The notes beneath the pieces were generated by a model. The model searched no databases and was not told where the DNA came from. It worked only from the letters and a program-made list of their open reading frames with translations. A program made the position numbers and the translations under genes. Shown in pieces: positions 42,884-50,555 of a stretch of DNA of 64,000 nucleotides (positions within the stretch are counted from its first letter, which is position 1; each line of letters opens with the position of its first letter). Source of the stretch: a virus; IMG/VR virus record IMGVR_UViG_3300036893_000033, positions 30,888 to 94,887 of that record; one strand, 5' to 3'.

Positions 42884-43618
42884 ATGCCAGCCACACACGT
42901 TTTGATTCGCGGACACCAATTCACCTATGCCGAGAAGGCTCCGTTTGCAGTGTCTGGCGAGTCCGTGTTGGGAGCGATTGAGTACGACGAAACCACAGAC
43001 CAGACCAAGTGCCACGAGTGCGGAGAATGGTTCAGTGGCATGGGCAGCCACATTAAATCACACGGAATAAAGCGGGACACATACAACGAGAAGCACGGTA
43101 TGCGGATACGATCTTCGCTGTCTGGCTTTACCGTTCGGCAGAAGCACCGGACGCTGGCCACAAAAGCATTTGAGGGGGGCGGCAACCTGAACCGCGTGGA
43201 CGTCGAGAAGAAGGACGCAGCCAGGATAGCCACCAACAAGCGACGCAAGGGAACAGCCGGAAACACGGCGGAGTACGACAACGAGCGCGCCAGGTGCAAG
43301 GCGCAGTCTCTGTTCAAGATCCAAACTCTTGCGGCGCAGACCGGGCACACGCCGACCTCGGCGGAATTATCTCAGATCGGCCTCGGGTCAACGATGCTTG
43401 CCTCGCGGTTTGGGTGCGTTAAAAATGCAATGCGGCTCGCAGGTCTGGAGCCTAACTTGGATGGCCACGTGCCGATGTCTGTCCCAAAAGGATTCCCTAC
43501 GGCGGAAGAAATCGCAGAGCGCAAGCGTCGATGGGAGGCGCCTATGCCGTGGCCGAAAGACGACGGCCCCAGTCTTCCATTCAGCCGGTCTGCCATAGCT
43601 GGAGCAATGGAGCGGTAA
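42884..43618 (+). CDS. MucR/Ros-type zinc finger protein with HNH-repeat-like end
   Basis: A 244-residue protein. CHECGEWFSGMGSHIKSH gives Cys43, Cys46, His56, His60 with C-x2-C-x9-H-x3-H spacing, the prokaryotic Ros/MucR finger, followed by the family's LT-x-x-Y-like part (KRDTYNEKHGM). Near residues 150-185, GHTPTSAELSQIGLGSTMLASRFGC resembles the DNA-binding repeat of HNH homing enzymes. It is a DNA-binding regulator or a homing-type protein without an evident nuclease core. Confidence 0.65.
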   Translation: MPATHVLIRGHQFTYAEKAPFAVSGESVLGAIEYDETTDQTKCHECGEWFSGMGSHIKSHGIKRDTYNEKHGMRIRSSLSGFTVRQKHRTLATKAFEGGGNLNRVDVEKKDAARIATNKRRKGTAGNTAEYDNERARCKAQSLFKIQTLAAQTGHTPTSAELSQIGLGSTMLASRFGCVKNAMRLAGLEPNLDGHVPMSVPKGFPTAEEIAERKRRWEAPMPWPKDDGPSLPFSRSAIAGAMER

Positions 43619-44002
43619 GCATTATCACCACCGTTCATGACGCGCGCCAGAAGCTGACTTTACAGGCATCCGAAGGTTAGCATAAGCGTACTCACCGACA
43701 TTCAGGCGCTCTTGACGGCGCGCGGGATACGCTACTGCCTGGCCCCGTACCCGGAGACGGATACGCTCGAAGAGTGGGCGGACAGGCACGACGCGCCGAT
43801 CCCGCCGCAATGAAGCCTCGGGGGCTATCCAAATCCAGTATTGCGCCGATAAGGATTCATGCTCAAAATCGGAAGCATGGATAAACTCGAAGAGGAATCA
43901 GATTTGGAGCGTGACAGAAGGACGCGGGTTGAAATGTCGGGAAGGACGCGGTAGGATGGAAACCAGTCTGGGCAGGAGTCCCGGAGATCAACCACACACA
44001 TT

Positions 44003-44043
44003 GGCCCGCGCGGGTACTGACTGACCCGCGCGGGCCGTTTTTT
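44003..44043 (+). terminator. Strong intrinsic terminator
   Basis: GGCCCGCGCGGGT (44003-44015) pairs perfectly with ACCCGCGCGGGCC (44024-44036) around an 8-base loop, followed by G and six T. It ends transcription from the tail-fibre side. Confidence 0.88.
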
Positions 44044-44124
44044 ATGCGGGCAGGAAAGCGCGTGCGACGTACTCAGCCAGACTGTGAGCAGTACCACGGC
44101 ACACGCGCGGCCAGGGATAGGCGT

Positions 44125-44130
44125 TAAAAT
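44125..44130 (+). promoter_or_regulatory. TAAAAT -10 box, leaderless type
   Basis: GCGTTAAAATA with TAAAAT ending 6 bases before the ATG at 44137 and lying just after the strong terminator, so a new transcription unit starts here. Confidence 0.45.
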
Positions 44131-44136
44131 AACCAC

Positions 44137-44979
44137 ATGTTCTCCCAAGTCCCCCACCACCATAGGCTGTACGCGGGAATCCTGACGGCCATCGGCTCCG
44201 TGGCGATCTATTATCTTATTCAGGTCGAGCGGGCAAACGTTAGATTTCAGGATCAGGCCACGTTAACGCTTCGGACGCTGCCGAAGACGTTTACCGATGC
44301 GGTCCACGTTGAGATGACTGGTCTGCGCGCTGATGTACTGGCAAGGGTAGACGTGGGGCTTGACGATCTTGAGAAGACCGAACAGGACGCCAATGATCGC
44401 GTGGCTAGCGGTTTGTCGATCCTCAGGCAGGCCGAGTCCGACGCCAGCGACAGACTGGAACCGATCACGAATCCCGGCACCGGCGTCACCGCAACGCTAT
44501 GGAAGCTGGAGACGGATTTCAACCAGGGGCTGAACGGGAAGGGCGGGGCGGTTCAGAGCATAGCCGAACTGAGCGGGGCGTACCAGGCCGTGCCGTCTCA
44601 GTTGGCAGCCCAGGTTCTCCCCGCATGGAAGGCTATGGAGCCGGAGTTTACGTGCAGGCGCACGCTCCCCGACGGAACCACCGCCGGGTACGGGGGGTGC
44701 TACCACGCAGCGATCACGGCCACGCTCAACGAAACCCGCAATACGCTGGCGCAAGTACAGATCGGCATGAAAACATTCCCGGAGGTAGCCGTAAACATTA
44801 AAGCCGCCACAGATGCCAGCGCCGAAGCCAGCAAGAACGCCGCCGGGGTGCTCGCAAATTTAAAGGAGAGCACCAGGCCACTCCCCCGCTGGGCGCGGAT
44901 CGGATTGGGTGTAGCCCCGCCACTGGCATCCACCGCCAGCGCGATCATCGGCGCTCTGGCCTTAATCGGCGCGCTGTAG
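44137..44979 (+). CDS. Membrane protein with long periplasmic coiled region
   Basis: A 280-residue protein: N-terminal helix (YAGILTAIGSVAIYYLI), a helical middle with many Asp/Glu/Lys, and a C-terminal hydrophobic segment (APPLASTASAIIGALALIGAL). Two Cys near 170. It starts the unit that ends with the lysozyme. A lysis or superinfection function is possible but unproven. Confidence 0.55.
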   Translation: MFSQVPHHHRLYAGILTAIGSVAIYYLIQVERANVRFQDQATLTLRTLPKTFTDAVHVEMTGLRADVLARVDVGLDDLEKTEQDANDRVASGLSILRQAESDASDRLEPITNPGTGVTATLWKLETDFNQGLNGKGGAVQSIAELSGAYQAVPSQLAAQVLPAWKAMEPEFTCRRTLPDGTTAGYGGCYHAAITATLNETRNTLAQVQIGMKTFPEVAVNIKAATDASAEASKNAAGVLANLKESTRPLPRWARIGLGVAPPLASTASAIIGALALIGAL

Positions 44980-45080
44980 CTGCGGCTGTGGCTGCGGCAG
45001 CCTGCGGCAGCCTGCGGCTGTGACTGCGGCTGTGACTGCGGCCGTGACTGCGGCCGTGACTGCGGCAGCCTGCCTTAGTA
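44976..45080 (+). repeat. Tandem GC-rich short repeats
   Basis: Imperfect tandem copies of a 12-base unit TGTGACTGCGGC and a related CTGCGGCAGC, continuing with a degenerate copy near 45105-45130. Non-coding, between two small genes; could form slipped structures or mark recombination. Confidence 0.7.
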
Positions 45081-45151
45081 CGCTACCGAGCCGATGACTG
45101 AGGTGACTGCGGTTGTGACTGCGGCGGTAGCGCGTTAACCGCAGGAAACGC

Positions 45152-45157
45152 TACACT
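45152..45157 (+). promoter_or_regulatory. TACACT -10 box, leaderless type
   Basis: TACACT followed by 6 bases and the ATG at 45164. No convincing -35. Confidence 0.35.
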
Positions 45158-45163
45158 GTACCC

Positions 45164-45466
45164 ATGTACCTCCATGCCTTAGCGGACTTCGCGGATCGCC
45201 ATAAAGAGGGGCTTGGCTTGCTCGGGATCAGCGCCGTCGTAACGATGAGACCGAAACTGCCGTGGCCTTTCTGTCGGGTGGAGGCGCTTGAGTGGTGCTA
45301 CGAGTGGATGCGTGAGGCTCTGTTGACGTTACTCAGCTTCAAAGGTCCCCTGCCGCATGGCGCAATGGCGCAGTCTTCGGAGCACACCAGCACAGATGCG
45401 GCGGGAAACAGGGAAACGTCTAAGGAGTCGTCTTCGACGGGCGCAGCGACACCGCCGGTCGCTTAG
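45164..45466 (+). CDS. Hypothetical amphipathic protein
   Basis: A 100-residue protein. The first 65 residues are well structured (LGLLGISAVVTMRPKLPWPFCRVEALEWCYEWMREALLTLLS) and the tail is Ser/Thr/Pro-rich and disordered. Such proteins occur beside lysis genes, but no family is assigned. Confidence 0.55.
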   Translation: MYLHALADFADRHKEGLGLLGISAVVTMRPKLPWPFCRVEALEWCYEWMREALLTLLSFKGPLPHGAMAQSSEHTSTDAAGNRETSKESSSTGAATPPVA

Positions 45467-45559
45467 GGCATTGGGGTTCGTGCTTCCGGCGTTCGCGATC
45501 GCCCATGGGTTTCCTGCAAAATGTGCATGGCGCAAGGCTTTTTGGCCGACCCGTCATGC

Positions 45560-45588
45560 TTGACATTGTGACACAAAAATACTACCAT
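45560..45588 (+). promoter_or_regulatory. Promoter and inverted-repeat leader before 45730 gene
   Basis: TTGACA (45560-45565), 17-base spacer and TACCAT (45583-45588). Downstream, GAATCTGGA (45614-45622) and TCCAGATTC (45641-45649) form a perfect 9-base stem in the predicted 130-base leader. Confidence 0.5.
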
Positions 45589-45729
45589 TCATCGTGCCCT
45601 ATTTCTGCAAGCGGAATCTGGAAAGCTCGCCAAGCTCTAATCCAGATTCTGCCTTTCAGTCTCTGAATCCAAGATCGCTGCTGAACGAACACTCTGCCCC
45701 TGCGGGCGCCCAAAGGAACCCAACCCAGA

Positions 45730-46107
45730 ATGACATGGCTACACAATCTGCTTTCCAAAATTGAAAATTTACTCGGCAAAACATCCCCGAAAATCGAAGC
45801 GGTCGCTCAGGAGATCGAATCCCTGCTGCCAGCCGCCCTTGGCATCGTTAACGACATCAACGCAATCGCCCCCAACAAGACGCTGACTGAGTTGAACGCG
45901 GTGGCGACGAAATACGCTTTGCCTGGGATAACCGCGCTGGCCGAAGGCCAGACGGCCGGCAACGTGGCGTTGAACCTGGGAACCCAGATCCTCGCAAAAA
46001 ACCACGCACCGACAGCGGATACTTCGCTGCTGAATACCGTCATCCAACTGGCGGTGACAGCAGCAAACGCGACCGCGCCCGCTCCGACCACATCCCCCGC
46101 CGCTTAA
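45730..46107 (+). CDS. Hypothetical helical phage protein
   Basis: A 125-residue all-helical protein (KIEAVAQEIESLLPAALGIVND, ALPGITALAEGQ). Size and style match small phage proteins found near holin/lysin genes. No hydrophobic membrane helix. Function unknown. Confidence 0.5.
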   Translation: MTWLHNLLSKIENLLGKTSPKIEAVAQEIESLLPAALGIVNDINAIAPNKTLTELNAVATKYALPGITALAEGQTAGNVALNLGTQILAKNHAPTADTSLLNTVIQLAVTAANATAPAPTTSPAA

Positions 46108-46173
46108 CCGCGCGGCATGCGTTAAGTCGAGACCGCCCCATTCGGAGCAATCCGCTTGGGGCATTTTCTGCGT

Positions 46174-46179
46174 TAAAAT
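46174..46179 (+). promoter_or_regulatory. TAAAAT -10 box, leaderless type
   Basis: GCGTTAAAATA with TAAAAT ending 6 bases before the ATG at 46186, identical in layout to the boxes at 29713 and 44125. Confidence 0.4.
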
Positions 46180-46185
46180 AAAACC

Positions 46186-46719
46186 ATGCAACACCCCACG
46201 AGCAACCGCATATCTCTGATCCTTCTGGCCGCTGGCCTTGCCATGGCGGCCATGTACATTTGCTTTTCGCCTCCGATGGCGGTGGCGCAGGGCAATCGCG
46301 TGGGGCCGGAGAGCGCATATCCGCCAGCGTCCGTACCGGGTTTTCCGAACCCAGACGTAACGCAGGAAAATATCAGTTCAACCGTCTGTAGGGCTGGCTG
46401 GACGAAGACGATCCGACCTCCAGGGGCGTACACAAATAAACTCAAGGCCCAGCAGATGGTGGCGCTCCACCTCCCCGGAAAGCCATCCGAATACGAAGAG
46501 GACCATTTTTTGAGCCTGGAAATTTCTGGTCACCCAACGGACCCGCGCAACCTGTGGCCACAAAGCTACAGCGGGCAATACGGAGCGCGGGTCAAAGACC
46601 AGGTAGAGGACAAAATGAAGCGCGAACTGTGCGCTGGAACGATGACCCTAAAGCAGGTTCAGGATTGCATAATCTCCGACTGGATCGCGTGTGGCAGGGC
46701 GCACGGTGCCATCAAATAA
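46186..46719 (+). CDS. Secreted HNH-like nuclease
   Basis: A 177-residue protein. Signal peptide to about residue 35 (LILLAAGLAMAAMYIC...MAVAQ). The C-terminal half has the HNH-type core: YEEDHFLSLEISGH with Asp106-His107 and DPRNLWPQ with Asn122, then a helix (KDQVEDKMKRELCAG). The third metal ligand is not certain. A periplasmic or released nuclease just before the lysozyme would act on host DNA at or after lysis, or on incoming DNA. Confidence 0.65.
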   Translation: MQHPTSNRISLILLAAGLAMAAMYICFSPPMAVAQGNRVGPESAYPPASVPGFPNPDVTQENISSTVCRAGWTKTIRPPGAYTNKLKAQQMVALHLPGKPSEYEEDHFLSLEISGHPTDPRNLWPQSYSGQYGARVKDQVEDKMKRELCAGTMTLKQVQDCIISDWIACGRAHGAIK

Positions 46720-46723
46720 TGCC

Positions 46724-46996
46724 GTGACCCGCCGCCAGCAAGCCATAGACGCCGCCATCCTGGCACTGAGGTGCGAACCGGAAAACGCACGGGAAATGCT
46801 GACGAAGCTGATTGAAGATGCGGAGCGGGGCAAGCTGAAGGAGTCTTTCCCGGTGCATATCGTGGGGTATAATATCGACAGAACCGTAGAGGCTTTCGGA
46901 ACCGCTATCCAGCGCGGCGCGGCGCATACGTTCGCACCTCCGCATGGTGGCGGAAACTGCACCATTTGCGCTTTGCCGGAGGGCGATCACTCGTGA
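46724..46996 (+). CDS. Small protein with Cys/His end
   Basis: Ninety residues from GTG (in-frame upstream codons overlap the nuclease). Helical first half (RQQAIDAAILALRCEPENAREML), and an end with HTFAPPHGGGNCTICALPEGDH that could bind zinc. Its stop overlaps the lysozyme GTG. Confidence 0.45.
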   Translation: MTRRQQAIDAAILALRCEPENAREMLTKLIEDAERGKLKESFPVHIVGYNIDRTVEAFGTAIQRGAAHTFAPPHGGGNCTICALPEGDHS

Positions 46997-47535
46997 CTCT
47001 GATAGAGTCCTGCATTGCGTTTACTGGGCGGCAGGAGGGATTCTGCGCATGGCCATACTTAGACACGGAGTCCAACGTGACCATCGGCTTCGGCATTATG
47101 TGCCCTACCGCCGTGGCGCTCGCCAATCTGTTTGGTCTCACGTCACCCGCCGACATCGCGCCCATCGCAGAGCAGTTCAGCGCGGTGAAGTCCAGCGAAC
47201 CGGGTAAGTGCTCGGGATATTACGAGCAGTTCAGTAAAATTCGAATGCCACTCGACCGCGCACAGGAAATTATGGCGCAGCGCCTGGGTTCTTCCATAAC
47301 TCAGTGCCGTAAGCGTATCCCCGAATTCGACGCGCTGCCGATTCCGGTCGCCACCGCCGCCGTTGACATCGACTACAACGTCAAAGGCGGTATCGGCAGC
47401 TTCCCCTCCTTCTGCGCCGCTGTCGCGCGGGGAGACTGGGCCGCCGCTGCCGTGGAGAGTGACCGACCGCAGTTACCAAAGCGGTCGGCGGATACCAGGG
47501 CGCTGATACTTTCGGTGGCTAACGCGGTCTCGTAA
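46993..47535 (+). CDS. GH24-type lysozyme (endolysin)
   Basis: A 180-residue muramidase that cuts peptidoglycan for lysis. Glu15, Asp24 and Thr30 (RQEGFCAWPYLDTESNVTIGFG) have the same spacing (9 and 6) as the T4 lysozyme Glu-Asp-Thr triad. The rest follows the family (ALPIPVATAAVDIDYNVKGG, DRPQLPKRSADTRALI). GTG start chosen from the four-base overlap with the previous gene. Six Cys are unusual and suggest disulfides. Confidence 0.85.
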   Translation: MTLIESCIAFTGRQEGFCAWPYLDTESNVTIGFGIMCPTAVALANLFGLTSPADIAPIAEQFSAVKSSEPGKCSGYYEQFSKIRMPLDRAQEIMAQRLGSSITQCRKRIPEFDALPIPVATAAVDIDYNVKGGIGSFPSFCAAVARGDWAAAAVESDRPQLPKRSADTRALILSVANAVS

Positions 47536-47564
47536 AGTAGGGGAATTATACATGTGAGAACAAA

Positions 47565-48848: not shown

Positions 48849-49673
48849 ATGAACAAGCTCGACACGGCCAAGCGAACACAGATCGTCAAATGCCTGGTTG
48901 ACGGCGTTTCCATTCGTGGCACCGTCCGCATTACTGGCGCATCGAAGAACACGATTGCGAAACTCCTGGTGGAGTTGGGCGCGGCGTGCTCCGAATACCT
49001 CGACAGGACGCTAGTGAATCTCAAAAGCAAGCGGATTCAGTGCGATGAAATATGGTCGTTCGTAGCAGCCAAAGAGAAGAACGTTACCCCTAAAATGGCG
49101 GCGGCAAAGTTCTGCGGTGACGCCTGAACCTGGGTAGCAATTGACGCCGACTCAAAGCTTATCTGCTCCTGGCTGATCGGCAAACGGGACGCGGGGTGCG
49201 CGACGGCATTCATTCAGGACTTAGCGGGACGCCTCAAGAATCGCGTGCAACTCACCACCGATGGCCTCAAGCTCTATCTCAACGCGGTTGCCGATGGGTT
49301 CGACGGAGACATCGACTACGCCATGCTGGTGAAGGTATACGGAACCGACCGTGAAGGCGAGAAGCGGTATAGCCCCGCTACATGCCTTGGCTGCGAGACC
49401 CACACGATCAAGGGCAACCCCGACCCTGCGCACATAAACACCAGCTACATTGAACGCCAGAACCTCACGATGCGCATGTCGATGCGCCGCTTTACCCGGC
49501 TAACGAATGCTTTTTCAAAGAAGCTTGAGAACCACATTGCGACCGTGGCGATCCACACGATGTATTACAACTTCGTGCGCATCCACCAAACGTTGCGGGT
49601 TACTCCAGCCATGGCGGCCGGCGTTACTGATCGGCTGTGGGCGGTGGAGGATCTGGTGGAGCTACTGGATTGA
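48849..49673 (+). pseudogene. IS1-type transposase with in-frame TGA
   Basis: An N-terminal helix-turn-helix (RTQIVKCLVDGVSIRGTVRIT), a Q-C-DEIWSF strand with catalytic Asp, then TGA at 49125-49127, then TWVAIDADSKLICSW, LTTDGLKLY with the second Asp, and SYIERQNLTMRMSMRR with the Glu/N-R motif. Related enzymes have Trp at the TGA position, so TGG became TGA. Both halves are otherwise intact and in frame, so loss is recent. Confidence 0.85.
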
Positions 49674-50373
49674 GCGGGTCCGGTAATTCCCAGATGTACT
49701 GAAGACCGTATTGCCCGCGTGCTTGTTCCAGCTGCCTTAGTCCCTCAAAGCCTACGCTAACTGCCGACACATCCTCCGGCCCAGACCCAACTACAGGGGG
49801 TGAAATAACTATCAGTTTTGTGTCGGTACCTACGCCGACATTTTTCTCACTGTACTTTTTCGCCTCATAGACCACATACAAGGCCTGTTTCAGGGAATCC
49901 CTCGGCGTACAATCTCGCGCGTTCAGGAATACCGCAGCTATGGCCCCGCCACTGCCAACGGTCGCGAAAGACTGATTGAAGTAGACTGACGGCTTTGTTG
50001 TGCTGCCGATGCTGACACCGCTTATTACGGGCACTGCGCCGATGAAGCCACAGGCGAGAATATCTACCGCTGCGTCCTTCCTGTACATCGGGCTGCCAAT
50101 AAATGAGTTTCCGGCATTCATCAGTAATTCAAATACTCGTCCACGGTCCGACGGCGCTCCGTTAGCCAGGAATTCTGACTTTATCCAGCCGTGGAGCTCT
50201 TTGGCTCTTACCCAGTCGCCCGACATCATATCTACCCAGCCGAAAGCGAGTTTTCCTATCTTTCGGTTTCCGTCGCTTGATCCCGCATACGAGCCATCCA
50301 GTTTCGTGTCCGCACAGAGGACTATCTTCGGATCAGATATTTCCTGGCAAATCGCTGCGATGCAAACCGTCAC
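49624..50373 (-). CDS. Proteasome-like Ntn hydrolase, IS passenger
   Basis: A 249-residue protein. GTG at 50373 is chosen over the longer frame: it gives Thr directly after the initiator Met (MTVCIAAICQ), as needed for an N-terminal nucleophile, and has GGAAAG nine bases upstream. VLCADTKLDG supplies the conserved Asp, and SFATVGSGGAIAAVFL the Gly-rich turn. The tail is Pro-rich. Its end overlaps the transposase end by 50 bases on the other strand. Substrate unknown. Confidence 0.65.
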   Translation of the reverse strand: MTVCIAAICQEISDPKIVLCADTKLDGSYAGSSDGNRKIGKLAFGWVDMMSGDWVRAKELHGWIKSEFLANGAPSDRGRVFELLMNAGNSFIGSPMYRKDAAVDILACGFIGAVPVISGVSIGSTTKPSVYFNQSFATVGSGGAIAAVFLNARDCTPRDSLKQALYVVYEAKKYSEKNVGVGTDTKLIVISPPVVGSGPEDVSAVSVGFEGLRQLEQARGQYGLQYIWELPDPLNPVAPPDPPPPTADQ

Positions 50374-50555
50374 TGGGTTCCGCTTTCCATTGGGCTTGGG
50401 CACAGGATATCGTACTTGCTTGAGCGGTCCGCGCGAGGGTGCCGGGCGTTGCAGAATCGGATGCCAGGTGGGCTGGATGTTTACCTCTCGATAGTGGCGC
50501 GGTTGATGTATACTTGCGGGTTCTGTAGCTGTTCGCATTTGTCAATCCCCCTGTT

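What the first reader, a model, noticed from the sequence alone, without database searches (positions are those of the whole stretch)
46186..46719. Exported HNH-like nuclease in the lysis cassette
Signal peptide plus HNH core directly before the lysozyme. It may destroy host DNA at lysis or block rival phage DNA in the periplasm (exclusion).
Basis: partly seen in the sequence, partly recalled or inferred. Interest (0 to 1): 0.55.

Follow-up and report, generated by a model that had tools for sequence, protein, structure and literature searches.

The report
Exported phage nuclease beside lysozyme
An uncultured phage carries a gene for an exported, nuclease-like protein close to its cell-wall-breaking enzyme, and other phage sequences repeat such a pairing, which suggests, though it is untested, that some phages release a nuclease as they burst the cell.

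Summary
The ORF is real (window 46186-46719, 177 aa): a signal peptide, then a compact domain with an HNH-type core, in an operon-like block that ends in a T4-type lysozyme-like gene. A 101-aa ORF lies between the two. The protein matches no family in Pfam or PHROGs, and tblastn finds no match in 50,697 GenBank phage records. Profile scans found 259 viral and at least 576 genome stretches that encode relatives. In 151 aligned rows K137, D138, E141, C149 and W166 never vary; DH and N hold too, partly by construction. The predicted fold is beta-beta-alpha; the canonical third ligand (H/N on the helix) and zinc cysteines are absent, with invariant D138/E141 nearby. PDB fold searches gave only weak matches.

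In 21 of 63 dereplicated viral loci the adjacent gene is a peptidoglycan hydrolase, of four Pfam types; 84 control genes at +-3 gave one such match. This favours 'lysis module' over 'exclusion'. Best reading: an exported nuclease stored outside the inner membrane that cuts host DNA when the cell bursts. Activity and timing are inferred. Phage-encoded secreted DNases are known (streptococcal Spd1), so this is a new variant of a known kind.

The parts
46186..46719 (+). exported HNH-like nuclease, 177 aa
   Evidence: identical DNA in the sister contig IMGVR_UViG_3300048502_000088
46186..46287 (+). predicted signal peptide, residues 1-34, AxA-type site after A34
   Evidence: hydrophobicity test; cleavage site by eye
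46387..46389 (+). Cys68, present in 149 of 151 aligned rows (2 gaps), proposed disulfide with Cys149
   Evidence: disulfide inferred
46501..46506 (+). Asp106-His107, end of strand 1, proposed metal ligand and general base
   Evidence: 151 of 151, partly by construction because YExDH was a scan pattern; also 12 of 12 in A1, whose members came from tblastn
46549..46551 (+). Asn122, the N of the HNH motif
   Evidence: 151 of 151 (part of a viral scan pattern, not of the genome one); Asp in 2 of 13 rows
46594..46608 (+). Lys137, Asp138 and Glu141 on the alpha helix, proposed replacement of the third ligand
   Evidence: 151 of 151, in no scan pattern; helix 134-150; 138 and 141 are Asn and Ala in 2 of 13 rows
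46630..46632 (+). Cys149, invariant, proposed disulfide with Cys68
   Evidence: disulfide inferred
46691..46996 (+). 101-aa ORF of unknown function between nuclease and lysozyme; overlaps both
   Evidence: no family over its cut-off
46993..47535 (+). T4-type lysozyme-like endolysin, 180 aa, starts inside the preceding stop (GTGA); E15, D24, T30
   Evidence: phrog_7 endolysin E 2.6e-4 with the 189-aa form
45730..46107 (+). 125-aa ORF upstream, unknown
   Evidence: identical DNA in the sister contig
46135..46162 (+). hairpin between the 125-aa ORF and the nuclease (10 of 12 pairs, 4-nt loop); possible weak terminator
   Evidence: (z -2.15); not flagged by the terminator scan
44002..44037 (+). 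strong terminator-like hairpin that separates the block from the genes before it
   Evidence: 14-pair stem, T run
44137..44979 (+). 280-aa ORF with hydrophobic segments near both ends, possible lysis-module membrane protein
   Evidence: hydrophobicity only

Best explanation
The gene encodes a secreted, disulfide-stabilised, HNH-like (beta-beta-alpha metal) nuclease made late with the lysozyme. The signal peptide moves it across the inner membrane during infection, so it is kept away from phage and host DNA in the cytoplasm and needs no immunity protein. When the membrane and wall collapse, it meets the released chromosome and cuts it; packaged phage DNA is shielded by capsids. The benefit would be freeing virions from a viscous DNA mesh. 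Shown here: the ORF, the signal-like N-terminus, conservation of the candidate active site, the predicted fold, and the recurrent adjacency to peptidoglycan hydrolases in relatives. Inferred: nuclease activity, disulfide, late expression, action at lysis, and benefit.
For: Conservation: 13 positions are 151 of 151, among them K137, D138, E141, C149 and W166, which were in no scan pattern. Predicted fold: strand 103-107, strand 123-127, helix 134-150, pLDDT about 97 over the domain. Profile-profile alignment to 18 Pfam-HNH proteins: P 4.3e-4 (probability only 34%), against a best P of 0.028 among 40 control families and 0.71 for the reversed profile. Of 23 PDB chains re-aligned, the only two with Z of 2 or more are nucleases (Sda1 Z 3.6, Gme HNH Z 3.5). 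BFVD: three phage proteins at E below 1e-5, two named HNHc. Export: 144 of 147 rows have a signal-like N-terminus, control 72 of 277. Lysis link: 21 of 63 dereplicated loci have a wall hydrolase at +-1; among 84 genes at +-3 one SLT match (first 25 of 31 families shown). L028 has holin, glucosaminidase and nuclease in a row. Cutting of released DNA at lysis was proposed for streptococcal phage DNase (passages of PMC3629212 and PMC2658872).
Against: P0001 has no match in Pfam or PHROGs at E 1 and only an unrelated one far below its cut-off in NCBIfam; member scans gave only weak matches. PDB fold search gives no E below 1; the core model alone gives one unrelated row at Z 2.1. Canonical third ligand and zinc cysteines are absent. 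In 2 of 13 rows, both sphingomonad plasmids, N122, D138 and E141 change to D, N and A. In 42 of 63 loci no adjacent wall hydrolase was detected; the closest viral relative besides the sister, L018, lies beside a structural gene. The 21 are not independent: 12 of the 17 CHAP loci (16 at +-1, one at +2) fall in one 39-row viral branch and 5 in another. Chromosomal relatives exist in many actinomycetes, so the protein has a use outside phages. In this phage the lysozyme is the second gene on, not the adjacent one.
Confidence: 0.5

Rival explanations
1. Superinfection exclusion: the nuclease in the periplasm cuts incoming DNA of other phages.
For: Signal-like N-terminus; in some relatives the gene lies near an integrase-like gene, a usual place for lysogeny genes (L028, L031, L071, L075; read from sequence).
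Against: No PADLOC match. Position in a lysis block suggests late expression. Relatives in actinomycetes have no Gram-negative type periplasm (general knowledge). Papers describe incoming genomes as shielded from periplasmic nucleases (T5 in PMC10975011, internal virion proteins in PMC8951688; passages). No tyrosine integrase match in the record, though a serine recombinase in a 246-aa frame is present.
Confidence: 0.12
2. Anti-transformation or eDNA clearance by a mobile element: the nuclease removes free DNA so that the carrier is not replaced by recombination.
For: Known for MGE DNases: Campylobacter Dns, IdeA, YokF (passage of PMC4774983). Relatives occur on plasmids, 52 records, and in genome contigs.
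Against: Does not explain the recurrent adjacency to wall hydrolases.
Confidence: 0.15
3. Nutrient scavenging: an auxiliary secreted nuclease gives the infected cell phosphorus and nitrogen from extracellular DNA.
For: Many relatives are signal-bearing proteins in genome contigs of Streptomyces and allied soil bacteria.
Against: A lysis-time product would give the cell little time to benefit (argument, not a test).
Confidence: 0.1
4. Not a nuclease in this phage: a catalytically dead or otherwise repurposed exported protein.
For: Canonical third ligand missing; no significant PDB fold match.
Against: Invariance of K137, D138 and E141, in no scan pattern, besides D106, H107 and N122.
Confidence: 0.13

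Closest known systems
Streptococcal prophage secreted DNases (Spd1, Sda1)
   Same: Phage-encoded, exported; Spd1 depends on His121, Asn145, Glu164 (passage of PMC9294136), here H107, N122, E141, with the same N-to-E distance of 19; Sda1 is the best weak fold match (Z 3.6); proposed to cut released DNA at lysis.
   Different: No sequence match to any PDB chain that would show kinship; H-to-N distance 15, not 24; near the lysozyme-like gene of a phage of unknown host.
Pfam HNH (PF01844) and Gme HNH endonuclease (4h9d)
   Same: DH at the end of strand 1, N 14-15 residues on, beta-beta-alpha.
   Different: No CxxC zinc sites, no conserved H/N on the helix; P0001 has no Pfam match.
Endonuclea_NS_2 (PF13930)
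   Same: 24 of 65 members match weakly, best E 6.7e-4.
   Different: The window protein itself does not match; the DRGH motif of such enzymes (recalled) is EEDH here.
MGE-encoded anti-transformation DNases (Dns, IdeA, YokF)
   Same: Exported DNases on prophages or ICEs (passage of PMC4774983).
   Different: Sequence relation not tested; here the link is to lysis genes.

Membership tests
HNH / beta-beta-alpha-metal nuclease superfamily | D/H-H pair at the end of the first strand | tested here: met
   D106-H107, strand 103-107; 12 of 12 in A1
HNH / beta-beta-alpha-metal nuclease superfamily | Conserved N between the strands | tested here: met
   N122, 151 of 151; D in 2 of 13 rows
HNH / beta-beta-alpha-metal nuclease superfamily | beta-beta-alpha topology | tested here: met
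   predicted model only
HNH / beta-beta-alpha-metal nuclease superfamily | Profile similarity to known members | tested here: inconclusive
   hhalign P 4.3e-4, probability 34%; above 40 controls
HNH / beta-beta-alpha-metal nuclease superfamily | Structural match to a solved member | tested here: inconclusive
   Z 3.5-3.6 for two nucleases; none by Foldseek; none for the core alone
HNH / beta-beta-alpha-metal nuclease superfamily | Metal-dependent nuclease activity | not testable with these tools
   needs an assay
Pfam PF01844 HNH | Third ligand H or N on the helix after a CN/CH motif | tested here: not met
   columns 131-136 carry no conserved H or N; K137, D138, E141 are conserved instead
Pfam PF01844 HNH | Score over the curated cut-off for this protein | tested here: not met
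   no match for P0001 at E 1; 1 of 12 A1 members at E 0.15
Pfam PF13930 Endonuclea_NS_2 | Score over the curated cut-off for this protein | tested here: not met
   no match for P0001 at E 1
Streptococcal Spd1/Sda1-type secreted phage DNases | Sequence or clear fold homology | tested here: inconclusive
   Sda1 Z 3.6 only; no PDB sequence match to such a chain
Streptococcal Spd1/Sda1-type secreted phage DNases | Exported, phage-encoded | tested here: met
   virus record, signal-like N-terminus (prediction)
GH24 (T4-type) lysozyme, for the neighbour | E-8x-D-5x-T triad and family score | tested here: inconclusive
   triad spacing present by eye; phrog_7 E 2.6e-4, Pfam below cut-off
Known anti-phage defence systems | PADLOC model match | tested here: not met

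The most novel reading that the evidence does not exclude
Exported nucleases are a regular extra component of lysis modules in uncultured phages, beside holin, endolysin and spanin: recruited repeatedly next to unrelated endolysins, stored outside the membrane, and set free to cut the host chromosome at the moment of lysis. The family uses a zinc-free H-N-(K-D-x-x-E) variant of the HNH site for which the searched libraries hold no model.
Probability: 0.35. Interest if true: 0.7.

Novelty: new variant of a known kind. Interest (0 to 1): 0.47.

Why it matters
If true, lysis by many environmental phages includes destruction of released DNA, which affects virion dispersal, the pool of free DNA and gene transfer after lysis. 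The family is common (259 viral and at least 576 genome stretches by pattern scan), yet five members found no match in 50,697 GenBank phage records, so work on sequenced phage isolates may have missed it. A DNase assay and a gene deletion would decide.

Tried and rejected
Conserved immunity-like partner: plasmid copies often have a roughly 100-aa gene downstream, but the partners of 8 plasmid loci plus the window's 101-aa ORF did not align as one family; dropped. Core-only model for fold search: no useful match. Regular expressions for GH24, GH19 and SLT on neighbours found nothing, GH108 one. First two attempts at an HNH control alignment failed (one search used only 3 sequences; one search read minus-strand loci in the wrong orientation); one search corrected this. 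Look-ups of the Spd1 structure paper and the CJIE1 DNase paper: not held. Passages of PMC13343844 added nothing. Eight paper searches were made; the four aimed at an exported HNH protein in phage lysis or exclusion, or a phage-encoded periplasmic nuclease, showed no paper on this family in their listings. The library holds open-licence PMC papers only, so absence from print is not claimed.

Limits: only the best 80 of 259 viral and the best 80 of at least 576 genome relatives were studied. YExDH (both scans) and the NLW stretch (viral scan) were scan patterns, so invariance of E104, D106, H107, and of N122 in viral rows, is partly by construction; other columns are not. Of 160 loci with a hit, 150 plus the window went into the alignment (identical proteins once, L017 left out); five rows were left out of the tree. 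Start codons were picked partly by hydrophobicity; the control allowed any start in the first 60 codons. In one search, 13 rows with cut or doubtful starts were dropped. Viral loci were cut from 80 to 63 at 95% identity, L017 left out. Genes came from a simple ORF tiling, and only same-strand neighbours were scanned (99 at +-1, 84 at +-3). Pfam tallies show the first 25 of 32 and of 31 families. For genome contigs, neighbours were only clustered, not searched for lysis families (largest cluster 8 of 80 loci, and many of these ORFs may be spurious).

Full report
What is there. The window is 30888-94887 of a 94,887-base IMG/VR virus record. A head-tail adaptor and tail genes lie between about 14.6 and 35 kb. 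After a strong terminator-like hairpin at 44002-44037 comes a block of + strand ORFs: 280 aa with hydrophobic ends, 100 aa, 125 aa, the finding (177 aa, 46186-46719), 101 aa, and a lysozyme-like ORF (46993-47535). The last three overlap end to start. A sister contig carries the block at 97% DNA identity (aligned 44000-47543), with the nuclease and the 125-aa ORF identical at every base; the match ends just behind the lysozyme.

The neighbour. The lysozyme-like protein matches phrog_7 (endolysin) at E 2.6e-4 and Pfam Phage_lysozyme only at 0.047. E15, D24 and T30 have the T4-lysozyme spacing (motif recalled). tblastn finds no match in GenBank phages and only the sister among viral contigs. No holin or spanin was named by a search.

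The family. P0001 has no match in Pfam or PHROGs at E 1, one unrelated match far below its cut-off in NCBIfam, none in PADLOC, and no meaningful PDB sequence match. A 12-row profile touched Cas8f-HNH fusions at E 0.11 over the YExDH region; the 65-row profile found none. tblastn in 50,697 GenBank phage records found nothing for the window protein or four other members; a neighbouring glucosaminidase as positive control found 216 records. Plasmids: 52 records, led by Streptomyces with 18; annotators called most shown members hypothetical and a few 'HNH endonuclease'. Profile scans: 259 viral stretches and at least 576 genome stretches, best 80 of each kept. In a tree of 146 rows, viral and genome rows are clustered but need at least 13-14 changes of label (shuffled mean 49; starred branches force 5); the window groups loosely with viral L018-L021, L032, L038, L061 and one genome row (many forks unresolved).

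Active site. Invariant in 151 rows: E104, D106, H107, L111, G115, P117, N122, L123, K137, D138, E141, C149, W166; C68 in 149 with 2 gaps. The YExDH part was a scan pattern, so its invariance is expected there, but E104, D106 and H107 also hold in the 12 rows of A1, found by tblastn. K137, D138, E141, C149 and W166 were in no pattern. Two sphingomonad plasmid members differ (N122D, D138N, E141A). The AlphaFold model has pLDDT about 97 over the domain, with strand 103-107, strand 123-127 and helix 134-150. Canonical HNH proteins carry the third ligand as H or N at the helix start, often with zinc cysteines (general knowledge); in Gme HNH the active site is Asp53-His54, Asn68, Asn77 beside a four-Cys zinc site (passages and abstract of PMC3765158). 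Those are missing here. Spd1 depends on His121, Asn145 and Glu164 (passage of PMC9294136); here H107, N122 and E141, with the same 19-residue step from N to E but a shorter step from H to N (15, not 24). I could not measure distances in the model, so the role of D138/E141 is inferred.

Relation to HNH. hhalign against 18 Pfam-HNH proteins gave P 4.3e-4 (probability 34%) with DH, GG and N in register; the best of 40 control families was 0.028 and the reversed profile 0.71. Weak library matches point the same way: phrog_589 (HNH) in 37 of 65 members, best E 0.0087, and Endonuclea_NS_2 in 24 of 65, best E 6.7e-4. Fold searches of PDB found nothing significant; among 23 chains re-aligned, only Sda1 (Z 3.6) and Gme HNH (Z 3.5) passed Z 2, a range that may be chance. 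BFVD gave three phage proteins at E below 1e-5, two named HNHc. So it works like an HNH-type nuclease, but it is not filed under PF01844.

Export. 144 of 147 rows start with a signal-like segment (76 of 77 viral, 68 of 70 genome). Starts were picked partly by hydrophobicity; a control that allows any start gave 72 of 277 neighbours. Two near-invariant cysteines fit a disulfide outside the cytoplasm (inference).

Lysis link. In 63 dereplicated viral loci, 21 have a wall hydrolase as the adjacent gene: CHAP 16, glucosaminidase 3, GH108 1, Amidase_2 1. It stands before or after the nuclease. The same Pfam scan of 84 genes at +-3 gave one SLT match among the families shown. The label needs at least 13 changes on the tree, so the link is recurrent, though 12 of the 17 CHAP loci sit in one viral branch and 5 in another. 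L028 reads holin, glucosaminidase, nuclease. Against this, in 42 of 63 none was detected, L018, the nearest relative besides the sister, sits beside a structural gene, some copies lie near integrase-like genes (read by eye), and 11 of 63 have a thioredoxin gene adjacent. In genome contigs neighbours were only clustered; no neighbour was widely shared (largest cluster 8 of 80), and lysis families were not searched there.

Mechanism. The lysis-time reading explains the signal peptide, the lysis block and the lack of a conserved partner together: export keeps the nuclease off cytoplasmic DNA until the membrane fails. The benefit (lower viscosity, virion release) was proposed for streptococcal phage DNase (passages of PMC3629212 and PMC2658872). 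Exclusion, anti-transformation (passage of PMC4774983) and nutrient use remain open, and different carriers may use the protein differently.

Verdict. A real, signal-bearing, HNH-like protein of a widespread family for which the searched libraries hold no model, repeatedly placed beside endolysins in phage contigs. New variant of a known kind (phage-encoded secreted DNases). Activity is untested.

Noticed in passing
window 42884-43618 (+): 244-aa ORF with HNH_repeat (PF18780, E 8.8e-6) and a weak Ros/MucR match (E 6.7e-4, below cut-off).
   Followed up: no
window 48849-49127 and 49245-49673 (+): Two ORFs that read like a split insertion-sequence transposase, in the stretch behind the lysozyme where the match to the sister contig has ended; from reading only.
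   Followed up: no
window 49624-50538 (-): 304-aa ORF that reads like a proteasome-type hydrolase (by eye; no Pfam match at E 1); in L044 the gene after the nuclease has a weak Proteasome match (E 2.1e-4).
   Followed up: partly
L034, L044, L051, L052, L057, L060, L072, L087, L092, L094, L096: A thioredoxin gene is adjacent to the nuclease in 11 of 63 dereplicated viral loci, on either side.
   Followed up: partly
L008 and L014: Sphingomonad plasmid copies lie directly before a gene annotated single-stranded DNA-binding protein; L008 has an annotated antirestriction gene after it. In these two rows N122, D138 and E141 are changed.
   Followed up: no
L006, L010, L013: Plasmid copies with an extra C-terminal cysteine-containing segment, similar in all three.
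   Followed up: no
G000:C1:20411-20851 (-), outside the window: A serine recombinase (PF00239, E 2.8e-38) in the record; no tyrosine integrase match.
   Followed up: no
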